IMG/VR virus record: IMGVR_UViG_3300032236_001168 | Coordinates: 1-28,167 of that record | Direction: 5' to 3' (one strand) | DNA from: a virus | DNA length: 28,167 bases | Shown: positions 3,281 to 12,867 of the stretch, piece by piece | How positions within the stretch are numbered: position 1 is the stretch's first letter | Layout of the letters: every line of letters begins with the position of its first letter | Translations under genes and position numbers: made by a program | The notes under the pieces: model-generated | Seen by the model: the letters and a program-made list of their open reading frames with translations, nothing else | The model's database searches: none | Told to the model about the DNA's origin: nothing

Positions 3281-3855
3281 TGTTGTATGAAATTCCAAAA
3301 TATGTTGATGTGACAGGTAAATTGCAACATTCTTTAAAAACAAAAGATGTTGTTCTTTGTCTTTGTTATCAACCACCAAATTTAAGATACAACCATCCTA
3401 ATAGAAATTCCGGCACTTTCAGTCAGGCTGTCTATGTGGTTTCTGGAGAATATACTTGTTGGCCAGCTTTTCGTGCTTGCGGACTGAATCGTGATACAAA
3501 AGATGAGGATGTACTACATATAAAATCAGGTGATTTTGTAAATCTTGAACATTTACAAAATATAACCACACATGACACAGCAGGACCTAATGGTGTTATG
3601 ATGATTCATATAAATCCATTATCTGGTAAACCACAATTTGATTTTGAGTTTATTGGTTCAAACGAAAAAAAAATAATAAAATCTTCAAACAGAAGAAAAA
3701 TTATATTTTGTTTCAAAGAAGAAGTTTTTGTGAATGGTGTTGAATTGTCTTTGTTGAATAGAATGAGAATGAAATATAATGACACTGTTGAAATTGAAAC
3801 TGGTGAAAATGGTGCATGTTTAGTTATGGAAAACCGAGATGAAAAAGAATTATAA
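3280..3855 (+). CDS. Cupin-like protein
   Basis: This 191-residue protein is beta-rich. The segments YVVSGEYTCWPAFRACGLNR, LHIKSGDFVNLEHLQNITTHDTAGPNG and VMMIHINPLSG resemble the alternating strands and turns of a small cupin or cupin-like barrel, with candidate metal-ligand histidines in EHL and THD. The N-terminal LCLCYQPP and FRACG cysteines are unusual for a phage protein. It sits directly ahead of the adenylating enzyme, whose start lies inside its 3' end (17-base overlap), so the two are likely made together. Cupins can be isomerases, oxygenases or sugar-modifying enzymes. The fold assignment is tentative. Confidence 0.45.
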   Translation: MLYEIPKYVDVTGKLQHSLKTKDVVLCLCYQPPNLRYNHPNRNSGTFSQAVYVVSGEYTCWPAFRACGLNRDTKDEDVLHIKSGDFVNLEHLQNITTHDTAGPNGVMMIHINPLSGKPQFDFEFIGSNEKKIIKSSNRRKIIFCFKEEVFVNGVELSLLNRMRMKYNDTVEIETGENGACLVMENRDEKEL

Positions 3856-5197
3856 TTGTTTAACACATTTAGAAGAAATTGCAAAAGAATTAAATGTAAT
3901 TGACAAGATTGCCTTTATAGAGAATGGAAAAACTATAACATATGGTCAGTTATATTCAAATGCAAAAGAATTTGGTCAATCACTTCTAAAACTTGGCCAA
4001 AAAAAATCAGACAGAGTTATTCTTTCAAAGAAAGATTCGATTGAGTTTGTTGTAAACTTTCTTGGTTTTTTATACGTTGGTGTAATACCAGTATTAGTCA
4101 ATAGTTCTATGTCACAAAATGATATAGATGATATCACTAAAAAGATTCAAGTCGATTATGAAACTGATGGTGCATTTATTCTATGTACATCTGGTACCAC
4201 TGGTCAAACCAAACTCGTAATACATTCACACGAAAGTATTTGTGGTACCGGTCTACAATATGGTAAAATCTTACAAATTACCAAAGATGATGTGGTTTTT
4301 TCCGCAGCTAAGATGACCCATGCCTATGGCTTAGGTAATTCACTTTCAATACCATTAACTTACGGTGCAACCGTTATTTTAGAACCAGAACTGCCGACAC
4401 CGGAAAAAATTGTTAGTCATATTGAAAATGGCAAAGTTAGTATTTTTTGTGGTGTACCAAGACACTTTACATCATTGTTGAATACTACCAGAAATTATGA
4501 TTTTGGTTCTTTGAGAATCTGTTTGTCAGCTGGTGAATCTTTACCAAAAAAAGTTGGGGAAGACTTTACAAATAGGTATGGTTGTGATATACTCGATGCA
4601 ATTGGTTCAACTGAGTTACTTGGTTTTGCATTGACAACCAGAATAGATGAGGTTGTTTATGGTGTTACTGGTAAACCAGTTGAAGGTGTAGATGTTAAAC
4701 TTGTTGATGAATATGGTGTAGAAGTTTCTACAGGTGAAATTGGTGAATTGTTTGTAAGAAGTGAATTTGCTTCAACAAACTATTATGATGATGCACCAGC
4801 AACAAATTACACATTTAGAGATGGTTGGATTAAAACGAATGATATGTATCAGGTCAAAAATGACCAGTTTATACATCGTGGAAGACGTAATGATTGTATT
4901 AAAATCAATGGTTTGTATGTATCATTGACTGGTTTGGAGAAAGACTTATATGAGGTGAATTCTATTTTAGAGGCGGCTGTCGTTTCTGGTGATAATAAAT
5001 ATGGACTGAGTAGAATAGAAATATTCGTGGTTTTGAAGGATGGTTATGACAAGAAACAAGAATATGTGAACATTCTTGAAAGATTCAAAACACATAATAC
5101 TATGTTTAAAAGACCTTATACCATCAAAATGGTAGATTCATTACCGAGAACTGCATCGGGAAAAATTAAGAAATACATACTTTTAAGTAGAGACTAA
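3839..5197 (+). CDS. Acyl/aryl-adenylating enzyme, benzoate-CoA-ligase-like (ANL superfamily)
   Basis: This 452-residue enzyme carries the full set of ANL motifs: the ATP-binding TSGTTGQTK at residues 117-125, GSTE at 256-259, TND at 333-335, the hinge GRRNDCIKINGLYVS at 348-362 and the C-terminal PRTASGKIKK at 436-445 with the catalytic lysine. The stretch AKMTHAYGLGNS and the region around residues 256-345 look most like benzoate-CoA ligases. Such enzymes activate a carboxylic acid as an acyl-adenylate and usually pass it to CoA or a carrier; no carrier protein is visible here. It is shorter than the usual 510-530 residues because about 70 residues are missing between the PVLVNSSM segment and the P-loop. 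The ATP-grasp gene follows after 2 bases. An ANL enzyme is unusual in a T4-like phage. Confidence 0.88.
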   Translation: MKKNYNCLTHLEEIAKELNVIDKIAFIENGKTITYGQLYSNAKEFGQSLLKLGQKKSDRVILSKKDSIEFVVNFLGFLYVGVIPVLVNSSMSQNDIDDITKKIQVDYETDGAFILCTSGTTGQTKLVIHSHESICGTGLQYGKILQITKDDVVFSAAKMTHAYGLGNSLSIPLTYGATVILEPELPTPEKIVSHIENGKVSIFCGVPRHFTSLLNTTRNYDFGSLRICLSAGESLPKKVGEDFTNRYGCDILDAIGSTELLGFALTTRIDEVVYGVTGKPVEGVDVKLVDEYGVEVSTGEIGELFVRSEFASTNYYDDAPATNYTFRDGWIKTNDMYQVKNDQFIHRGRRNDCIKINGLYVSLTGLEKDLYEVNSILEAAVVSGDNKYGLSRIEIFVVLKDGYDKKQEYVNILERFKTHNTMFKRPYTIKMVDSLPRTASGKIKKYILLSRD

Positions 5198-6346: not shown

Positions 6347-8389
6347 ATGAAGAAAAATTTAATCATGGCTTTGTTATTGCCAGTTTTTGGTCATGCAGCC
6401 GAACAAACATTGGATCCAGTTGTTGTTACGGCAACACGTTATGGATCGTATACTCTAGATGCACCAGCATCCATTGGTAAATATGAAGTACCATCAATTG
6501 GGTTGAAACTAACACCAGCTGATGTATTGAGTAGAGTACCAGGTATGCAAGTGGTTGATACAACAGGTACTGACATTAAATTGATGACAAGAGGTTTTGG
6601 TGCAAAAGCCTCTTTTGCTAGTCGTGGAGTTCAACTTTACCGTGATGGAATTCCAGTTAGTACAGCTGATTCAATTGGTCTAACATCACTTGTTGATATG
6701 AATACTATTGATAAAGTTGAAGTTATGCGTGGACCATTCAGTAGTTTATATGGTACAAGTTCCAGTGGTGTTGTACAAATGTTCACTGAAATTCCAACCA
6801 AAGATGAAATCTCTTATGGTGTCGTTAGTGGAAGTTTTGCTACAAAACAACAAAATATCAAATATACTGGCGTATCAAACAATGTCAAATATTTGATTAA
6901 TCAATCACAATTAACAACTGATGGTTATCGTGACTTTTCACATTTTAATCGTGACCAAACTACTGCCAAGTTGTGGGTAGATATGTCAGAATACACCAAC
7001 GTTGAGATTGGTGCAAATCTTTATAAACAAAGTGGTCAAGATTATGGTAATGGAAATGGTGGTATCACATTGTCACGTTTACAAACTAATCCTTATAGTG
7101 TAGATCCATCAGTTTACAATATCAACAGTTGGAAAAATGTTGACCAAAATGATATGAATATGCGTGTCACTCATGCAATCACATCAAATGACATTCTTGT
7201 TGTTACTGCATATGGTGGTAATCGTAACCAAGAACAACTAAGTCCAACAACCGAAAGCAATACTTTGGCTAGAACAACAGATGGGCTTTTGAAAAACTCA
7301 AAAGAATTCTGGGGTACCGAAGCACGTATTGACCATTCAGGAACAATTGGTACTAAAAAATATGATTTAACATTTGGTGTTGCATCACAAACACAAAATG
7401 AATTTGTTACAAACGGCAAATGGATGACACTTGGTGTACAATCTGATGGTAGTACTTTGACTAGAAGTGTTAATCAACAAGCCAGTGTTGTTAGCGAGTA
7501 TGTTCAAGGTCGTTTAGGACTAACCGATAAACTTGACTTTCACATGGGTGTTCGTAATGTTGACATGAATATGGATTATATTGACCATTTGACTACTGTT
7601 GCAAACGGTGGTGATAACAGTGGAAGTATGAAGTATAATGGTGTATTGCCTACTGTTGGTTTAGTTTGGAAAGTACAACCAAAAACAAGTTTGTATGCAA
7701 GTTATGGCAAAGGCATGGAACTTCCAACTTTTGTAGAAACACAATTTTCTACTGCTGTTGCAACAACAAAACCTAATACTACTTTGAAACCTAGTCAATC
7801 AGACAACTATGAATTTGGTGTAAAATCTTATATCACAAACAACAACTATGTTACTGCTGCAGTATTCCAAGCAAAAACACAGGATGAAATTGTTATCACA
7901 CAAAACGTACCTGGTTATAAAATCTATGGTAACTTAGGTTCAACAACTCGTCAAGGTGTTGAAGTTGGTATTGATTCTAAATTTCCTTATGGCTTTGGTG
8001 TATACACTTCAATATCATATTTGACTGCTACATTTGATGATACTGGTAAAACTATTCCAGGTGTTTCTAATACAACATCATTCACTGAATTTAGTTGGAA
8101 AAACAAACCAGAAAACTTTAAAGTTGCTTTAGAAGCAATTCACAATAGTAAAATGTATGGTGAAGTAGACAATTCTGTTTCATCTGATGGATACACAATA
8201 TATAACTTGAAAGTTACTGCAAAACAAAAAGTTAACAAACTAACATTTACAGAGTATGCTGGTGTTAATAACCTAGAAAACAAAGTATATGTTGCTAACT
8301 TGCGTACTGCTGCACAATATGGTCGTTACTATGAAACTGGTATCGCACGTAACACCATGTTTGGTGTAAATGCATCTTATGCTTTCTGA
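6347..8389 (+). CDS. TonB-dependent outer-membrane receptor, complete
   Basis: This is a full-length 680-residue receptor. It has a signal peptide (MKKNLIMALLLPVFGHAA, residues 1-18), a TonB box DPVVVTATR at 23-31, and a plug with LTPADVLSRVPGMQV, RGFGAKASFASRGVQLYRDGIP (about 82-103) and VEVMRGPFSSLYGTSSSGVV (124-143). A 22-strand-type barrel with many YGxGxELP/FETQ and NYEFGVKS features follows, ending in a C-terminal phenylalanine (NASYAF). Such receptors import iron chelates, cobalamin or other scarce compounds using TonB energy. The plug motifs resemble a FecA/siderophore-type subfamily I associate with betaproteobacteria. A strong AGGAG site lies 6 bases before the start. Codon use and base composition look like the phage neighbours, so it is not a recent raw host insertion. 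Its presence in a lytic-type phage is striking. Confidence 0.93.
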   Translation: MKKNLIMALLLPVFGHAAEQTLDPVVVTATRYGSYTLDAPASIGKYEVPSIGLKLTPADVLSRVPGMQVVDTTGTDIKLMTRGFGAKASFASRGVQLYRDGIPVSTADSIGLTSLVDMNTIDKVEVMRGPFSSLYGTSSSGVVQMFTEIPTKDEISYGVVSGSFATKQQNIKYTGVSNNVKYLINQSQLTTDGYRDFSHFNRDQTTAKLWVDMSEYTNVEIGANLYKQSGQDYGNGNGGITLSRLQTNPYSVDPSVYNINSWKNVDQNDMNMRVTHAITSNDILVVTAYGGNRNQEQLSPTTESNTLARTTDGLLKNSKEFWGTEARIDHSGTIGTKKYDLTFGVASQTQNEFVTNGKWMTLGVQSDGSTLTRSVNQQASVVSEYVQGRLGLTDKLDFHMGVRNVDMNMDYIDHLTTVANGGDNSGSMKYNGVLPTVGLVWKVQPKTSLYASYGKGMELPTFVETQFSTAVATTKPNTTLKPSQSDNYEFGVKSYITNNNYVTAAVFQAKTQDEIVITQNVPGYKIYGNLGSTTRQGVEVGIDSKFPYGFGVYTSISYLTATFDDTGKTIPGVSNTTSFTEFSWKNKPENFKVALEAIHNSKMYGEVDNSVSSDGYTIYNLKVTAKQKVNKLTFTEYAGVNNLENKVYVANLRTAAQYGRYYETGIARNTMFGVNASYAF

Positions 8390-9043: not shown

Positions 9044-9697
9044 ATGTTTAATTATTGTCCACCGGTAAAACTACCGGACTTGAAGTCACAAACATTTCCT
9101 GATGGTAAGCGTTACTATGTGACACCTGCCGGTTCAAAACTACCTTCCGTTACGACTGTGATTGGTGCTCAAAAGAAAGCATCAATCATGGCTTGGCGTA
9201 AACGTGTTGGTGAAGAAGCCGCCAATAAAATCTCCAAACAAGCATCTTCACGTGGTACTAATGTACATACATTATGTGAACGTTATCTAAACAACGATAA
9301 ATTAGGTGATATCATGCCTGATGCCAAAGAAATGTTTTTGGCTTTGATTCCGTTGTTGGACAAAATTGATAACATACATTACCAAGAACAAGCTTTATGG
9401 TCTGAACATCTTGGTCTTGCTGGTCGTGTTGATTGTATTGCAGAGTTTGATGGTGTGTTGTCTGTGATTGACTTTAAAACATCTAAAAGAATTAAACAAC
9501 GTGATGATATCAAAGATTACTTTTGGCAAGAAACTGCATATGCCTTGATGTACGAAGAATTGGTTGGTACACCTATTCACCAATTAGTTACTATCATGGC
9601 TATTGATAATGAACCACCTGGTTTGTTTATTGAATCAACAGAAGACCACATTGATGGTCTCGTTGCTGCTATTGAATTCTACCGAAAAAATTCTTGA
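9044..9697 (+). CDS. PD-(D/E)XK exonuclease, Cas4/RecB-like
   Basis: This 217-residue protein has the core motifs of a RecB/Cas4-like nuclease: a histidine in GTNVHTLCERYL (residues 71-82), GRVDCIAEFDG (127-137, first metal Asp at 130), VIDFKTSK (141-148, Asp143 and Lys145) and QETAYALMY (162-170, the QxxxY motif). I see no four-cysteine iron-sulfur cluster, so it is not a classic Cas4. T4-like phages commonly encode such single-domain nucleases, likely for DNA processing or host DNA breakdown. Its TGA stop overlaps the -35 box of the tmRNA promoter. Confidence 0.85.
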   Translation: MFNYCPPVKLPDLKSQTFPDGKRYYVTPAGSKLPSVTTVIGAQKKASIMAWRKRVGEEAANKISKQASSRGTNVHTLCERYLNNDKLGDIMPDAKEMFLALIPLLDKIDNIHYQEQALWSEHLGLAGRVDCIAEFDGVLSVIDFKTSKRIKQRDDIKDYFWQETAYALMYEELVGTPIHQLVTIMAIDNEPPGLFIESTEDHIDGLVAAIEFYRKNS

Positions 9698-9722
9698 CAA
9701 ACTAAATAATTTAATGTATAAT
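9694..9722 (+). promoter_or_regulatory. Consensus sigma70 promoter for the tmRNA
   Basis: The -35 box TTGACA at 9694-9699 and the -10 box TATAAT at 9717-9722 are both perfect and are separated by exactly 17 bases. Transcription would start near 9729. The spacer holds a CTAAATAA motif (9702-9709) that resembles a T4-type late promoter box, so the site may serve both early and late. The -35 box overlaps the stop codon of the upstream nuclease gene. Confidence 0.85.
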
Positions 9723-9794
9723 GTGAACTTATGGTTGTATGAAGCAACTTGAAATGTGTTCTGGACGGGGGTGCGAATCCCCCCATCTCCACCA

Positions 9795-9862
9795 TATATA
9801 CACTATTGCATAAAACCAACTCAATCATCCGAGTGCAGGCAAACCAATAGTGTTTATATGAT
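9795..9862 (+). other. Intervening segment of the permuted tmRNA precursor
   Basis: This 68-base segment joins the CCA end of the acceptor piece to the GGGG start of the coding piece and would be removed during maturation. ACACTATTG (9800-9808) pairs perfectly with CAATAGTGT (9845-9853), extending the acceptor stem, and ACTC (9819-9822) pairs with GAGT (9831-9834) within the loop. Such a base-paired insert is what is expected of permuted tmRNA precursors. Confidence 0.8.
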
Positions 9863-9944
9863 GGGGATGCATAGTTTCGACAGGGCAAATAGTACAGAAG
9901 TGGACAACTCATCAGAGAAGATGTAAAAACTAAATCAAGTAAAC

Positions 9945-9977
9945 GCAAACGACTCACAGTTCGCATTGGCAGCCTAA
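9945..9977 (+). other. tmRNA proteolysis-tag reading frame
   Basis: The frame reads GCA AAC GAC TCA CAG TTC and then GCA TTG GCA GCC TAA, giving ANDSQFALAA. The AND start and ALAA end match the classic tags recognised by ClpXP-type proteases. The sequence just before it, AGTAAAC, occupies the place of the ATAGTC-type signal that sets the resume codon in E. coli. Confidence 0.9.
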
Positions 9978-10052
9978 ACGCTGACTAGGGTTTCGGTTGG
10001 TTTCCTCGTAACAGAATAACCAACCAATTCTTATAACAACAAGGAGTTAATT

Positions 10053-10619
10053 TTGAAAAAAACAGTTCTAGCAGTAATTATGACCGCTGCATTTGGTTTG
10101 GTCAAAGCAGAAGGTACTTACGGCAGTCTTACGTATGACCAAAAAGACAAACAATCATCTGACCAAGTTAATCATGTTTATGGTTTGAATCTTGGCCAAA
10201 AATTCAAAGATGGTTGGTCAGCAGAAGTTCGCATGGAAGATGAAATCATTGCTGTTGGTAATGGTACACAAAAGCAAGAAGGTCTTGCACAAATTAAAGT
10301 GAGTAAAGATTTCTCATTTGGTATGGTAACACCATATGTTGCCGCTGCAGTTGGTCAAAAGAGCAAATCAACTAGCGATTTCCCATTTTGGGTTGGTGAA
10401 GTTGGTGCAAAAGTTAAATTAGGTGATTCTTTGACTGCTCGTTATGGATGGCGTGACCGTCAAGCATTTGATTTAGCAAACAGTTATAATACACGTGAAC
10501 ATACAGTTGCATTAGGTTTGAATGTAACTAAACAAGATACAGTTACAGCTGCTTATAAACAAGAGCGTGGTACAAGCAATTACAACACAACTGGTGTTTA
10601 TTACACACGTAGTTTCTAA
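10053..10619 (+). CDS. Small exported outer-membrane beta-barrel protein
   Basis: This 188-residue protein starts at a TTG with a strong AAGGAG site 6 bases upstream; no ATG would preserve the signal peptide. Residues 1-19 (MKKTVLAVIMTAAFGLVKA) form a signal peptide. The mature part has alternating amphipathic strands (TYGSLTYDQ, VYGLNLGQKF, WSAEVRMEDE, GEVGAKVKLG, LTARYGWRDR, HTVALGLNV, TVTAAYKQE) and ends VYYTRSF with the terminal phenylalanine of outer-membrane proteins. This fits an eight-strand barrel of the OmpX/OmpW size class. It is the first gene after the tmRNA with no clear terminator between, so they may share a transcript. It could alter adsorption by other phages or the permeability of the host envelope. 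Confidence 0.78.
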   Translation: MKKTVLAVIMTAAFGLVKAEGTYGSLTYDQKDKQSSDQVNHVYGLNLGQKFKDGWSAEVRMEDEIIAVGNGTQKQEGLAQIKVSKDFSFGMVTPYVAAAVGQKSKSTSDFPFWVGEVGAKVKLGDSLTARYGWRDRQAFDLANSYNTREHTVALGLNVTKQDTVTAAYKQERGTSNYNTTGVYYTRSF

Positions 10620-11516: not shown

Positions 11517-11741
11517 ATGCCAACAAAGAATGAGATTAGTGAATTCAGTGAGATGATTGAAAAGAAGTTTACAACTGGTAATGATGTAAATATTATGGAC
11601 ACAATCGTTCACTACTGTGAAACAACCGGCATGGAAATTGATGTGGCTTCTACTCTGATTTCTCCTGCACTTAAGGCCAAAATTAGAGAAGAAGCCGAAA
11701 ACTTAAACATGATGAAAAAGAGTGCCAAACTACCACTATGA
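11517..11741 (+). CDS. gp33: Late-promoter transcription accessory protein, gp33-like
   Basis: This 74-residue protein matches the T4-like gp33 family as found in marine relatives. The region IMDTIVHYCETTGMEIDVASTLISPALKAKIREEAENLNMMKKSAKLPL (residues 26-74) has the conserved acidic helix and the ending that contacts RNA polymerase and the sliding clamp. In T4, gp33 with gp55 and the clamp gp45 activates late promoters. The gene follows the hydrolase after a single base and overlaps the next gene (ATGA). Its presence supports reading the CTAAATAA motifs as late promoters. The family match is from memory of conserved residues. Confidence 0.75.
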   Translation: MPTKNEISEFSEMIEKKFTTGNDVNIMDTIVHYCETTGMEIDVASTLISPALKAKIREEAENLNMMKKSAKLPL

Positions 11742-12358
11742 GTTTTACATTTGAGGAAAGGTCTGGCTTTTCAGCCTATGCTTTATTCAATGCAGTTAAA
11801 TTACATTTTACCTCTGATAGTTATGATTATTTTAAGTATGGCGGTAAAACCAATGTTTCAAGAGACAACTTTGCTCAGCGAAAAGATAAGTATACATTTT
11901 ATCGGTTATCCAGAAATTATAGATTAGATGAGTTGAGAGATTTTTATGTTGCCAATTTTTTGGTTAAATCTGTAAACTGGATTGGTGATATTGCCAATGC
12001 GGAAGGTGAAGAAAACTACAAAAAGTGGCAAAAAAGAAACCAGAGCTTGACATATCAGTTTGAACAAGATATAATGGGTCTACTTAACGCAACACAATCA
12101 CCAAATGAAATGTTGGTGGTTACAGATGGACAATATCCATTGTTGCTGAAAGAGGTGATGCAAGGCACAATCAACATTGAAACGATGGTTATACTGAATG
12201 ACATTATGAATTTCTTTCCAATGTGGTCTAAAAAGATATCTGATACGATTGTCTGGCCAGAATATGAAAAGAAGTGTCTAAGTTACCAACCATTCATCAA
12301 TTATGATAAAAATAAATTTGTAAGTATTTTGAAAGAAAGTATCAAAGATTATGCATAA
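11738..12358 (+). CDS. gp59: Replicative helicase loader, gp59-like
   Basis: This 206-residue protein is close in length to T4 gp59 (217 residues) and shares its landmarks: an N-terminal winged-helix part (FSAYALFNAVKLHFT), a YGGKTNVSRDNFAQRKDKYTFYRLSRNY segment, WIGDIANAEGEENYKKW, FEQDI and a C-terminal helical part with ILNDIMNFF and DTIVW. gp59 binds forked DNA and gp32 and loads the gp41 helicase during recombination-dependent replication. It overlaps gp33 at the start and the nucleotidase at the end, so translation is coupled. Confidence 0.85.
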   Translation: MSFTFEERSGFSAYALFNAVKLHFTSDSYDYFKYGGKTNVSRDNFAQRKDKYTFYRLSRNYRLDELRDFYVANFLVKSVNWIGDIANAEGEENYKKWQKRNQSLTYQFEQDIMGLLNATQSPNEMLVVTDGQYPLLLKEVMQGTINIETMVILNDIMNFFPMWSKKISDTIVWPEYEKKCLSYQPFINYDKNKFVSILKESIKDYA

Positions 12359-12842
12359 ACAATTTATTAAGACCATTTATTTGGATATGGATGGTGTGAT
12401 TGCTGACTTTGAGAAGCGATACAAAGAAATGTTTGAAACAATGCCATCACGTGACGATAAGTCAAACAAATTTAACAGAAATTTTGATAAATTTATTGAA
12501 TCAAAACAATTTGCAACACTTGAGATGATGCCTGATGCGGAACATTTGATTAGTTTTTTAAAAGGTATTGATGTGCCAACCAAAATTCTTTCATCTACTG
12601 CAAGTGAAAAAAGACATGATGCTATTGCACCACAAAAAGAACAATGGCTAAATGAACATGATATTAAATTTGAACGTATCTTTGTACCTGGTAAACAATT
12701 AAAGTACAAATATGCAGATTCCGAATCTCTGATTATTGATGATACTGTAAGTGTTATTGATGATTGGCGTAGAAATGGTGGCCACGCAATTTGGCATAAT
12801 AATGTGCCTGCCACCTTGGCAATGTTGAAACTCTATGTTTGA
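12351..12842 (+). CDS. 5'(3')-deoxyribonucleotidase-like HAD phosphatase
   Basis: This 163-residue HAD-family enzyme has motif I YLDMDGVIADF (nucleophile Asp12, acid/base Asp14), motif II around KILSSTASEKR (residues 78-88) with a serine, and motif IV SLIIDDTVSVIDDW (125-138). This resembles the NT5C-type 5'(3')-deoxyribonucleotidases of T4-like phages, which would dephosphorylate deoxynucleoside monophosphates and help balance precursor pools during replication. Its TGA stop overlaps the -35 box of the gp32 promoter. Confidence 0.85.
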   Translation: MHKQFIKTIYLDMDGVIADFEKRYKEMFETMPSRDDKSNKFNRNFDKFIESKQFATLEMMPDAEHLISFLKGIDVPTKILSSTASEKRHDAIAPQKEQWLNEHDIKFERIFVPGKQLKYKYADSESLIIDDTVSVIDDWRRNGGHAIWHNNVPATLAMLKLYV

Positions 12843-12867
12843 CAACGCCTAAATAAAAGTATATAAT
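12839..12867 (+). promoter_or_regulatory. Consensus sigma70 promoter for gp32
   Basis: TTGACA (12839-12844) and TATAAT (12862-12867) are perfect boxes with a 17-base spacer. The spacer contains CTAAATAA (12849-12856), the same late-type motif seen in the tmRNA promoter. Transcription would begin near 12874, leaving a leader of about 50 bases before gp32. Confidence 0.85.

What the first reader, a model, noticed from the sequence alone, without database searches (positions are those of the whole stretch)
9694..10028. Phage-encoded, circularly permuted tmRNA with its own consensus promoter
The 3' half with T-arm and CCA (to 9794) precedes the 5' half that begins GGGGATG (9863). The two acceptor strands pair over seven positions, and the 5' half holds an in-frame tag ANDSQFALAA with a stop in a P5-like hairpin. 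One-piece tmRNAs are known in some phages, but a permuted two-piece gene in a T4-like phage is, to my knowledge, rare. It would let the phage sustain ribosome rescue or redirect protein tagging during late infection. The perfect sigma70 promoter suggests strong, early expression by host polymerase.
Basis: partly seen in the sequence, partly recalled or inferred. Interest (0 to 1): 0.9.

Follow-up and report, generated by a model that had tools for sequence, protein, structure and literature searches.

The report
Two-piece tmRNA in a T4-like phage
This phage carries its own complete copy of the RNA that frees stuck ribosomes, in the cut-and-rearranged (two-piece) form; such phage copies are already known, so it is a well-supported new member rather than a new kind, although it belongs to a large, little-described phage branch and runs directly into a downstream protein gene.

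Summary
Confirmed. Window 9733-10028 is a circularly permuted (two-piece) tmRNA gene. Rfam gives beta_tmRNA 125.4 bits (cut-off 84) and tmRNA_permuted 121.8 bits (cut-off 47); ARAGORN reads the tag ANDSQFALAA. A 12/12 sigma70-consensus promoter lies at 9694-9722. The acceptor stem, the stem closing the intervening segment and the tail hairpin are kept by compensatory change in relatives. The surroundings are T4-like.

"Rare" does not hold. Two-piece tmRNAs are published for marine phages (Melnitz, Mosig; PMC9004378). A beta-type permuted tmRNA is present in a T4-like Stenotrophomonas phage. One 15-mer recovered 85 further viral contigs with permuted tmRNA.

No terminator was found after it; the tail runs into a ribosome-binding site and an ORF, here an outer-membrane beta-barrel. 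No SmpB gene was found in 14 phage records, so use of host SmpB is inferred. Expression and activity are untested.

The parts
9694..9722 (+). sigma70-type promoter, 12 of 12 consensus, 17-nt spacer; its -35 box TTGACA overlaps the stop codon (TGA 9695-9697) of the upstream exonuclease gene
   Evidence: at least 11 of 12 matches in 29 of 79 phage relatives against 0.4% of random stretches
9733..9794 (+). 3' (acceptor) piece of the permuted tmRNA: P2 strand, T-arm, 3' acceptor strand, discriminator A and encoded CCA
   Evidence: T-arm and ACCA kept in relatives
9767..9783 (+). T-arm (GGGGG TGCGAAT CCCCC)
9784..9790 (+). 3' strand of the acceptor stem (CATCTCC), pairs with 9863-9869
9795..9862 (+). 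intervening (processed-out) segment; its ends form a helix that continues the acceptor stem
   Evidence: fold z -7.8; own helix 10.4 bp against 6.8 for exchanged partners in 60 relatives
9863..10028 (+). 5' (mRNA-like) piece of the permuted tmRNA, from acceptor 5' strand GGGGATG to tail hairpin (3' end approximate)
9945..9977 (+). tag reading frame GCA...TAA, ANDSQFALAA
9963..9991 (+). P5-like hairpin with the stop codon in its loop (predicted)
9995..10025 (+). tail hairpin GGTTGGTT / AACCAACC enclosing TCCTCGTAACAGAAT
   Evidence: covaries in relatives
10041..10046 (+). Shine-Dalgarno-like AAGGAG following the tmRNA tail; no intrinsic terminator between
10053..10619 (+). small outer-membrane beta-barrel protein (188 aa, TTG start, signal peptide-like N-terminus, C-terminal F), first ORF after the tmRNA
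   Evidence: PF13505 E 1.3e-5, just under its cut-off; 10 strands, pLDDT 89
9044..9697 (+). PD-(D/E)XK exonuclease (PHROG 298), upstream neighbour
11517..11741 (+). gp33-like late-transcription regulator, downstream border of the slot

Best explanation
A functional, phage-owned, circularly permuted tmRNA gene. A host RNA polymerase promoter (9694-9722) starts a precursor at about 9730. The precursor folds so that the intervening segment (9795-9862) is a hairpin stacked on the acceptor stem. Host tRNA-processing enzymes cut out that loop, giving an acceptor piece (about 9733-9794, CCA encoded) and an mRNA-like piece (9863 to about 10028) held together by the acceptor stem and P2. Charged with alanine (G3-U70 present) and bound to host SmpB, it would rescue stalled ribosomes and append ANDSQFALAA, a normal ClpXP-type LAA degron. 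The likely benefit is to keep ribosomes recycled while host mRNA is being destroyed. The same transcript probably reads on into the outer-membrane-protein gene at 10053. Shown by sequence comparison: identity, permuted order, covarying stems, tag frame, promoter match, position, lack of a terminator match. Inferred: transcription, processing, charging, SmpB use, tagging, benefit, read-through.
For: Rfam RF01850 and RF04321 above curated cut-offs; ARAGORN permuted call. Of 82 phage sequences parsed, 81 have 7 of 7 acceptor pairs in four covarying versions (GGGCCTG/CAGGTCC 42, GGGGGTG/CACCTCC 23, GGGGCTG/CAGCTCC 15, GGGGATG/CATCTCC 1), with G3-U70 in all of these; all 82 have ACCA. Intervening stem: own mean helix 10.4 bp against 6.8 with exchanged partners, maximum 7.4 in 200 trials. 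Tail hairpin 7.0 against 5.3, maximum 5.7 in 300. Called tag begins with GCA in 75 of 80 and all 80 have a stop. Same chromosomal slot as the tmRNAs of Melnitz and Mosig.
Against: No expression or processing data. The record is a 28-kb fragment, so a phage smpB elsewhere cannot be excluded for this phage, though none was found in 14 other phage records. Rfam beta score (125 bits) is well below that of bacterial permuted genes (155-296 bits), so function has to be argued from conservation.
Confidence: 0.87

Rival explanations
1. A decayed or non-tagging relic of a captured host tmRNA gene, kept by chance or used only as a processed leader or as an SmpB decoy (as proposed for the tRNA-like-only tmRNA of mycobacteriophage DS6A).
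For: Scores are lower than in bacteria; a tRNA-like-domain-only phage tmRNA that may act by titrating SmpB is discussed in PMC4131195.
Against: Complete tag frame with canonical LAA end; three separate stems held by compensatory change; tag and acceptor intact in dozens of relatives.
Confidence: 0.07
2. Main value is regulatory: the tmRNA acts as processed 5' leader that brings transcription, RNA stability or RNase cutting to the downstream surface-protein gene, with ribosome rescue secondary.
For: A Shine-Dalgarno and ORF lie within 130 nt of the conserved AACAGAA tail motif in 49 of 78 phage genes, mostly 25-48 nt away, against 0 of 33 non-window-group genes, of which 32 are bacterial; no terminator in the window between tmRNA and ORF; Mosig gp33 overlaps its annotated tmRNA end.
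Against: The downstream gene differs between loci (barrel, sugar epimerase, hydroxylase, unknown), so no single partner is required; some phage loci do have a terminator-like hairpin just after the tail. Compact phage genomes commonly lack terminators between genes.
Confidence: 0.15
3. Recent capture from the current host chromosome (host gene transfer) rather than a long-standing phage gene.
For: Permuted beta-type tmRNAs occur in Rhodocyclales and in a subset of a Burkholderiales family.
Against: No bacterial contig of 84,980 species holds GCATAGTTTCGACAGGGYAA, present in the window and many relatives; phage sequences fall on one side of a branch with support 99/98, Melnitz included (selected by a 15-mer, so biased); no long match in 399 genomes of the order, only T-arm-sized or similarly short matches.
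Confidence: 0.1

Closest known systems
Rfam RF01850 beta_tmRNA / RF04321 tmRNA_permuted (betaproteobacterial two-piece tmRNA)
   Same: Permuted order, acceptor stem with G3-U70, T-arm, tag frame ANDxxxALAA, tail hairpin; scores above both cut-offs.
   Different: Phage genes have a shorter acceptor-to-GTTTCGAC joint, mostly a longer intervening stem, CCA encoded (the Rhodocyclales genes sampled here read ACCC), and no terminator directly after the gene in the window.
Two-piece tmRNA of Methylophilales phage Melnitz and Pelagibacter phage Mosig (Kyanoviridae; PMC9004378)
   Same: Permuted tmRNA in a T4-like aquatic phage, same slot between PD-(D/E)XK exonuclease and gp33; host-type promoter.
   Different: Those are alpha_tmRNA by Rfam (106.7 and 67.6 bits), the window is beta_tmRNA; Melnitz has a glutamine riboswitch after the gene, the window an outer-membrane-protein ORF.
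Permuted tmRNA of Stenotrophomonas phages (Menderavirus, e.g. vB_SmaM_Bhz51, OR797040)
   Same: T4-like phage, RF01850 92.1 bits, permuted, same GGGGATG/CATCTCC acceptor.
   Different: Lies in a tRNA cluster, tag contains ANDDSYTVRIAA, different neighbours.
One-piece phage tmRNAs (mycobacteriophage Bxz1 group, Bacillus phage G; PMC4131195)
   Same: Phage-encoded ssrA.
   Different: Not permuted (listed as phages with ssrA; form from general knowledge).

Membership tests
Permuted (two-piece) tmRNA, RF04321 / RF01850 | Covariance-model score above the curated cut-off | tested here: met
   121.8 against 47 bits and 125.4 against 84 bits
Permuted (two-piece) tmRNA, RF04321 / RF01850 | 3' acceptor piece encoded before the 5' mRNA-like piece | tested here: met
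Permuted (two-piece) tmRNA, RF04321 / RF01850 | Seven-pair acceptor stem with G3-U70, T-arm, ACCA | tested here: met
Permuted (two-piece) tmRNA, RF04321 / RF01850 | Resume codon, tag frame and stop | tested here: met
   GCA...TAA, ANDSQFALAA
Permuted (two-piece) tmRNA, RF04321 / RF01850 | Pseudoknot next to the tag | not tested
   Covariance models and folds used here do not model pseudoknots
Permuted (two-piece) tmRNA, RF04321 / RF01850 | Two mature RNA pieces produced in the cell | not testable with these tools
   needs RNA from infected cells
Permuted (two-piece) tmRNA, RF04321 / RF01850 | Charging with alanine and SmpB-dependent tagging | not testable with these tools
   biochemistry needed; no SmpB in 14 related or reference phage records, so the host's would be used
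T4-like (Kyanoviridae-related) phage | T4-type gene set and order | tested here: met
   PhoH, gp33, gp59, gp32, gp6 nearest to Mosig, HTVC008M, Melnitz at 37-39%
Melnitz-type phage tmRNA (alpha type) | alpha_tmRNA as best Rfam family | tested here: not met
   beta_tmRNA is the best family of its clan for the window

The most novel reading that the evidence does not exclude
A phage-specific branch of permuted tmRNA that has been kept for a long time in a fixed exonuclease-gp33 slot of T4-like aquatic phages, and that doubles as the processed 5' leader of a surface-protein or sugar-modification mRNA, so that ribosome rescue and surface remodelling are switched on by one early host promoter.
Probability: 0.25. 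Interest if true: 0.6.

Novelty: new member of a known kind. Interest (0 to 1): 0.38.

Why it matters
It adds a large, apparently phage-specific set of two-piece tmRNAs to the few described ones and shows they share a chromosomal slot in T4-like phages of otherwise different hosts. That makes testable why lytic phages carry their own ribosome-rescue RNA, without SmpB. Whether transcription continues from the tmRNA into a coding gene is a simple, open question raised by the anatomy.

Tried and rejected
Close relatives in annotated phages by megablast of 25 kb: none. A protein search for the barrel gene in viral contigs found none. Exact phage-type 20-mer in 84,980 bacterial genomes: none. A blastn search for a bacterial donor in 399 genomes of one order gave only short matches, most of T-arm size. 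First alignment of L052 used wrong coordinates and is not used. The first acceptor tabulation was shifted by one base and was replaced. Rival that it is an ordinary tRNA or a chance hit: rejected by two covariance models and covariation. An E-value Rfam scan of the locus added no further family such as a riboswitch.

Full report
Observation. Two Rfam models exceed their curated cut-offs, RF01850 beta_tmRNA at 125.4 bits and RF04321 tmRNA_permuted at 121.8 bits (repeated on the locus alone). ARAGORN independently calls a permuted tmRNA with tag ANDSQFALAA. The acceptor strands 9784-9790 and 9863-9869 pair in all seven positions with the G3-U70 wobble, and CCA is encoded (9792-9794). The segment between them folds into one long helix (z = -7.8).

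Conservation. ARAGORN calls a permuted tmRNA in 85 of these contigs besides the window. The nearest is about 86% identical. Of 82 parsed phage sequences, 81 have a fully paired acceptor in four covarying versions. The stem closing the intervening segment is kept although its sequence changes: mean helix 10.4 bp, against 6.8 when partners are exchanged between phages (maximum 7.4 in 200 trials). The tail hairpin behaves alike (7.0 against 5.3, maximum 5.7). These tests use related sequences, so the exchange trials are a control, not a strict probability. Called tags start with GCA in 75 of 80 and 73 of 80 end in LAA. Close relatives of the window's phage (exonuclease about 90% identical: L059, L064, L113) keep the frame but differ in the tag (for example ANDESYALAA, ANDESYRIAA).

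Promoter. TTGACA-17-TATAAT is perfect. Three such sites occur in the window against 0.04 expected, so it looks like this phage's early-promoter style. In 29 of 79 relatives at least 11 of 12 positions match just upstream of the 3' piece, against 0.4% of random stretches.

Setting. Upstream lie a PhoH-like gene and a PD-(D/E)XK exonuclease; downstream a barrel protein, a 92-aa protein, a cell-wall hydrolase, gp33, gp59 and gp32. The gp6 homologue is nearest to those of Mosig, HTVC008M and Melnitz. In Melnitz and Mosig the tmRNA lies between the exonuclease and gp33 as well, but both are alpha_tmRNA by Rfam. Among the viral contigs, the exonuclease lies within 1.6 kb upstream in 39 of 79, and gp33 or gp59 downstream in 30 of 43 with enough sequence; these two counts include Melnitz and the window.

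Missing terminator. Bacterial permuted genes of the small-genome Burkholderiales group have a hairpin and T-run right after the tail. No terminator-like site lies between 9994 and the ORF in the window. A Shine-Dalgarno with an ORF of at least 50 codons lies within 130 nt of the AACAGAA motif in 49 of 78 phage genes and in none of the 33 others, 32 bacterial plus Melnitz. The terminator detector was crude, so only the ORF count is relied on. The commonest downstream protein is a small beta-barrel (16 loci including the window), predicted as a 10-stranded barrel (pLDDT 89) with barrel matches in the PDB. Other loci have dTDP-sugar epimerase, GDP-mannose dehydratase or Asp/Asn hydroxylase families.

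Origin. The phage-type 20-mer is absent from 84,980 bacterial and archaeal genomes. In a short-alignment tree (149 columns) the phage rows and Melnitz are on one side of a branch (99/98), Rhodocyclales, small-genome and one-piece genes on the other. Because the phage rows were picked by a shared 15-mer, their grouping is partly built in; Melnitz sits there on a very long branch, and a Stenotrophomonas phage not picked by it has no firm place. A phage-specific branch is likely but not proven. Most genomes sampled in that bacterial order had one-piece or sub-threshold hits.

Function. Phage SmpB was not found in 14 phage records while 10 of 14 control genomes rang, so host SmpB is the likely partner. 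The LAA end matches the normal proteolysis tag (established knowledge). The most likely role is ribosome recycling during infection. This is inference.

Known or new. Two-piece phage tmRNAs were described with Melnitz: 53 of 133 unique phage tmRNAs were two-piece and 50 of those were aquatic (PMC9004378). The permuted tmRNA of a T4-like Stenotrophomonas phage also scores as beta type (92.1 bits). The finding is therefore a new member of a known kind, with a new observation about its neighbours and read-through layout.

Noticed in passing
window 6347-8389: A complete TonB-dependent receptor gene (plug and barrel domains) in a T4-like phage; only distant phage matches, mostly fragmentary or in odd records.
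   Followed up: partly
window 3839-5197: AMP-binding (acyl-CoA synthetase-like) enzyme between structural-type genes and the TonB receptor.
   Followed up: no
window 12047-12075 and 12839-12867: Two further perfect sigma70 promoters; one inside the gp59-like gene, the other just before the gp32-like gene.
   Followed up: no
L004, L088, L016, L064, L107, L252: Phage tmRNA tags with unusual C-termini (ANDSQFRMVA, ANDESYRIAA, ANDSRFLMAA...TVRIAA) that may alter protease recognition.
   Followed up: no
L002, L017, L011 and relatives: Sugar-nucleotide genes (dTDP-4-dehydrorhamnose epimerase, GDP-mannose dehydratase, epimerase) as first ORF after the phage tmRNA in other loci.
   Followed up: partly
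L181, L208-L213: A subset of one bacterial family has permuted tmRNA while most sampled members score as one-piece, so the permuted form is patchy even within a family.
   Followed up: partly
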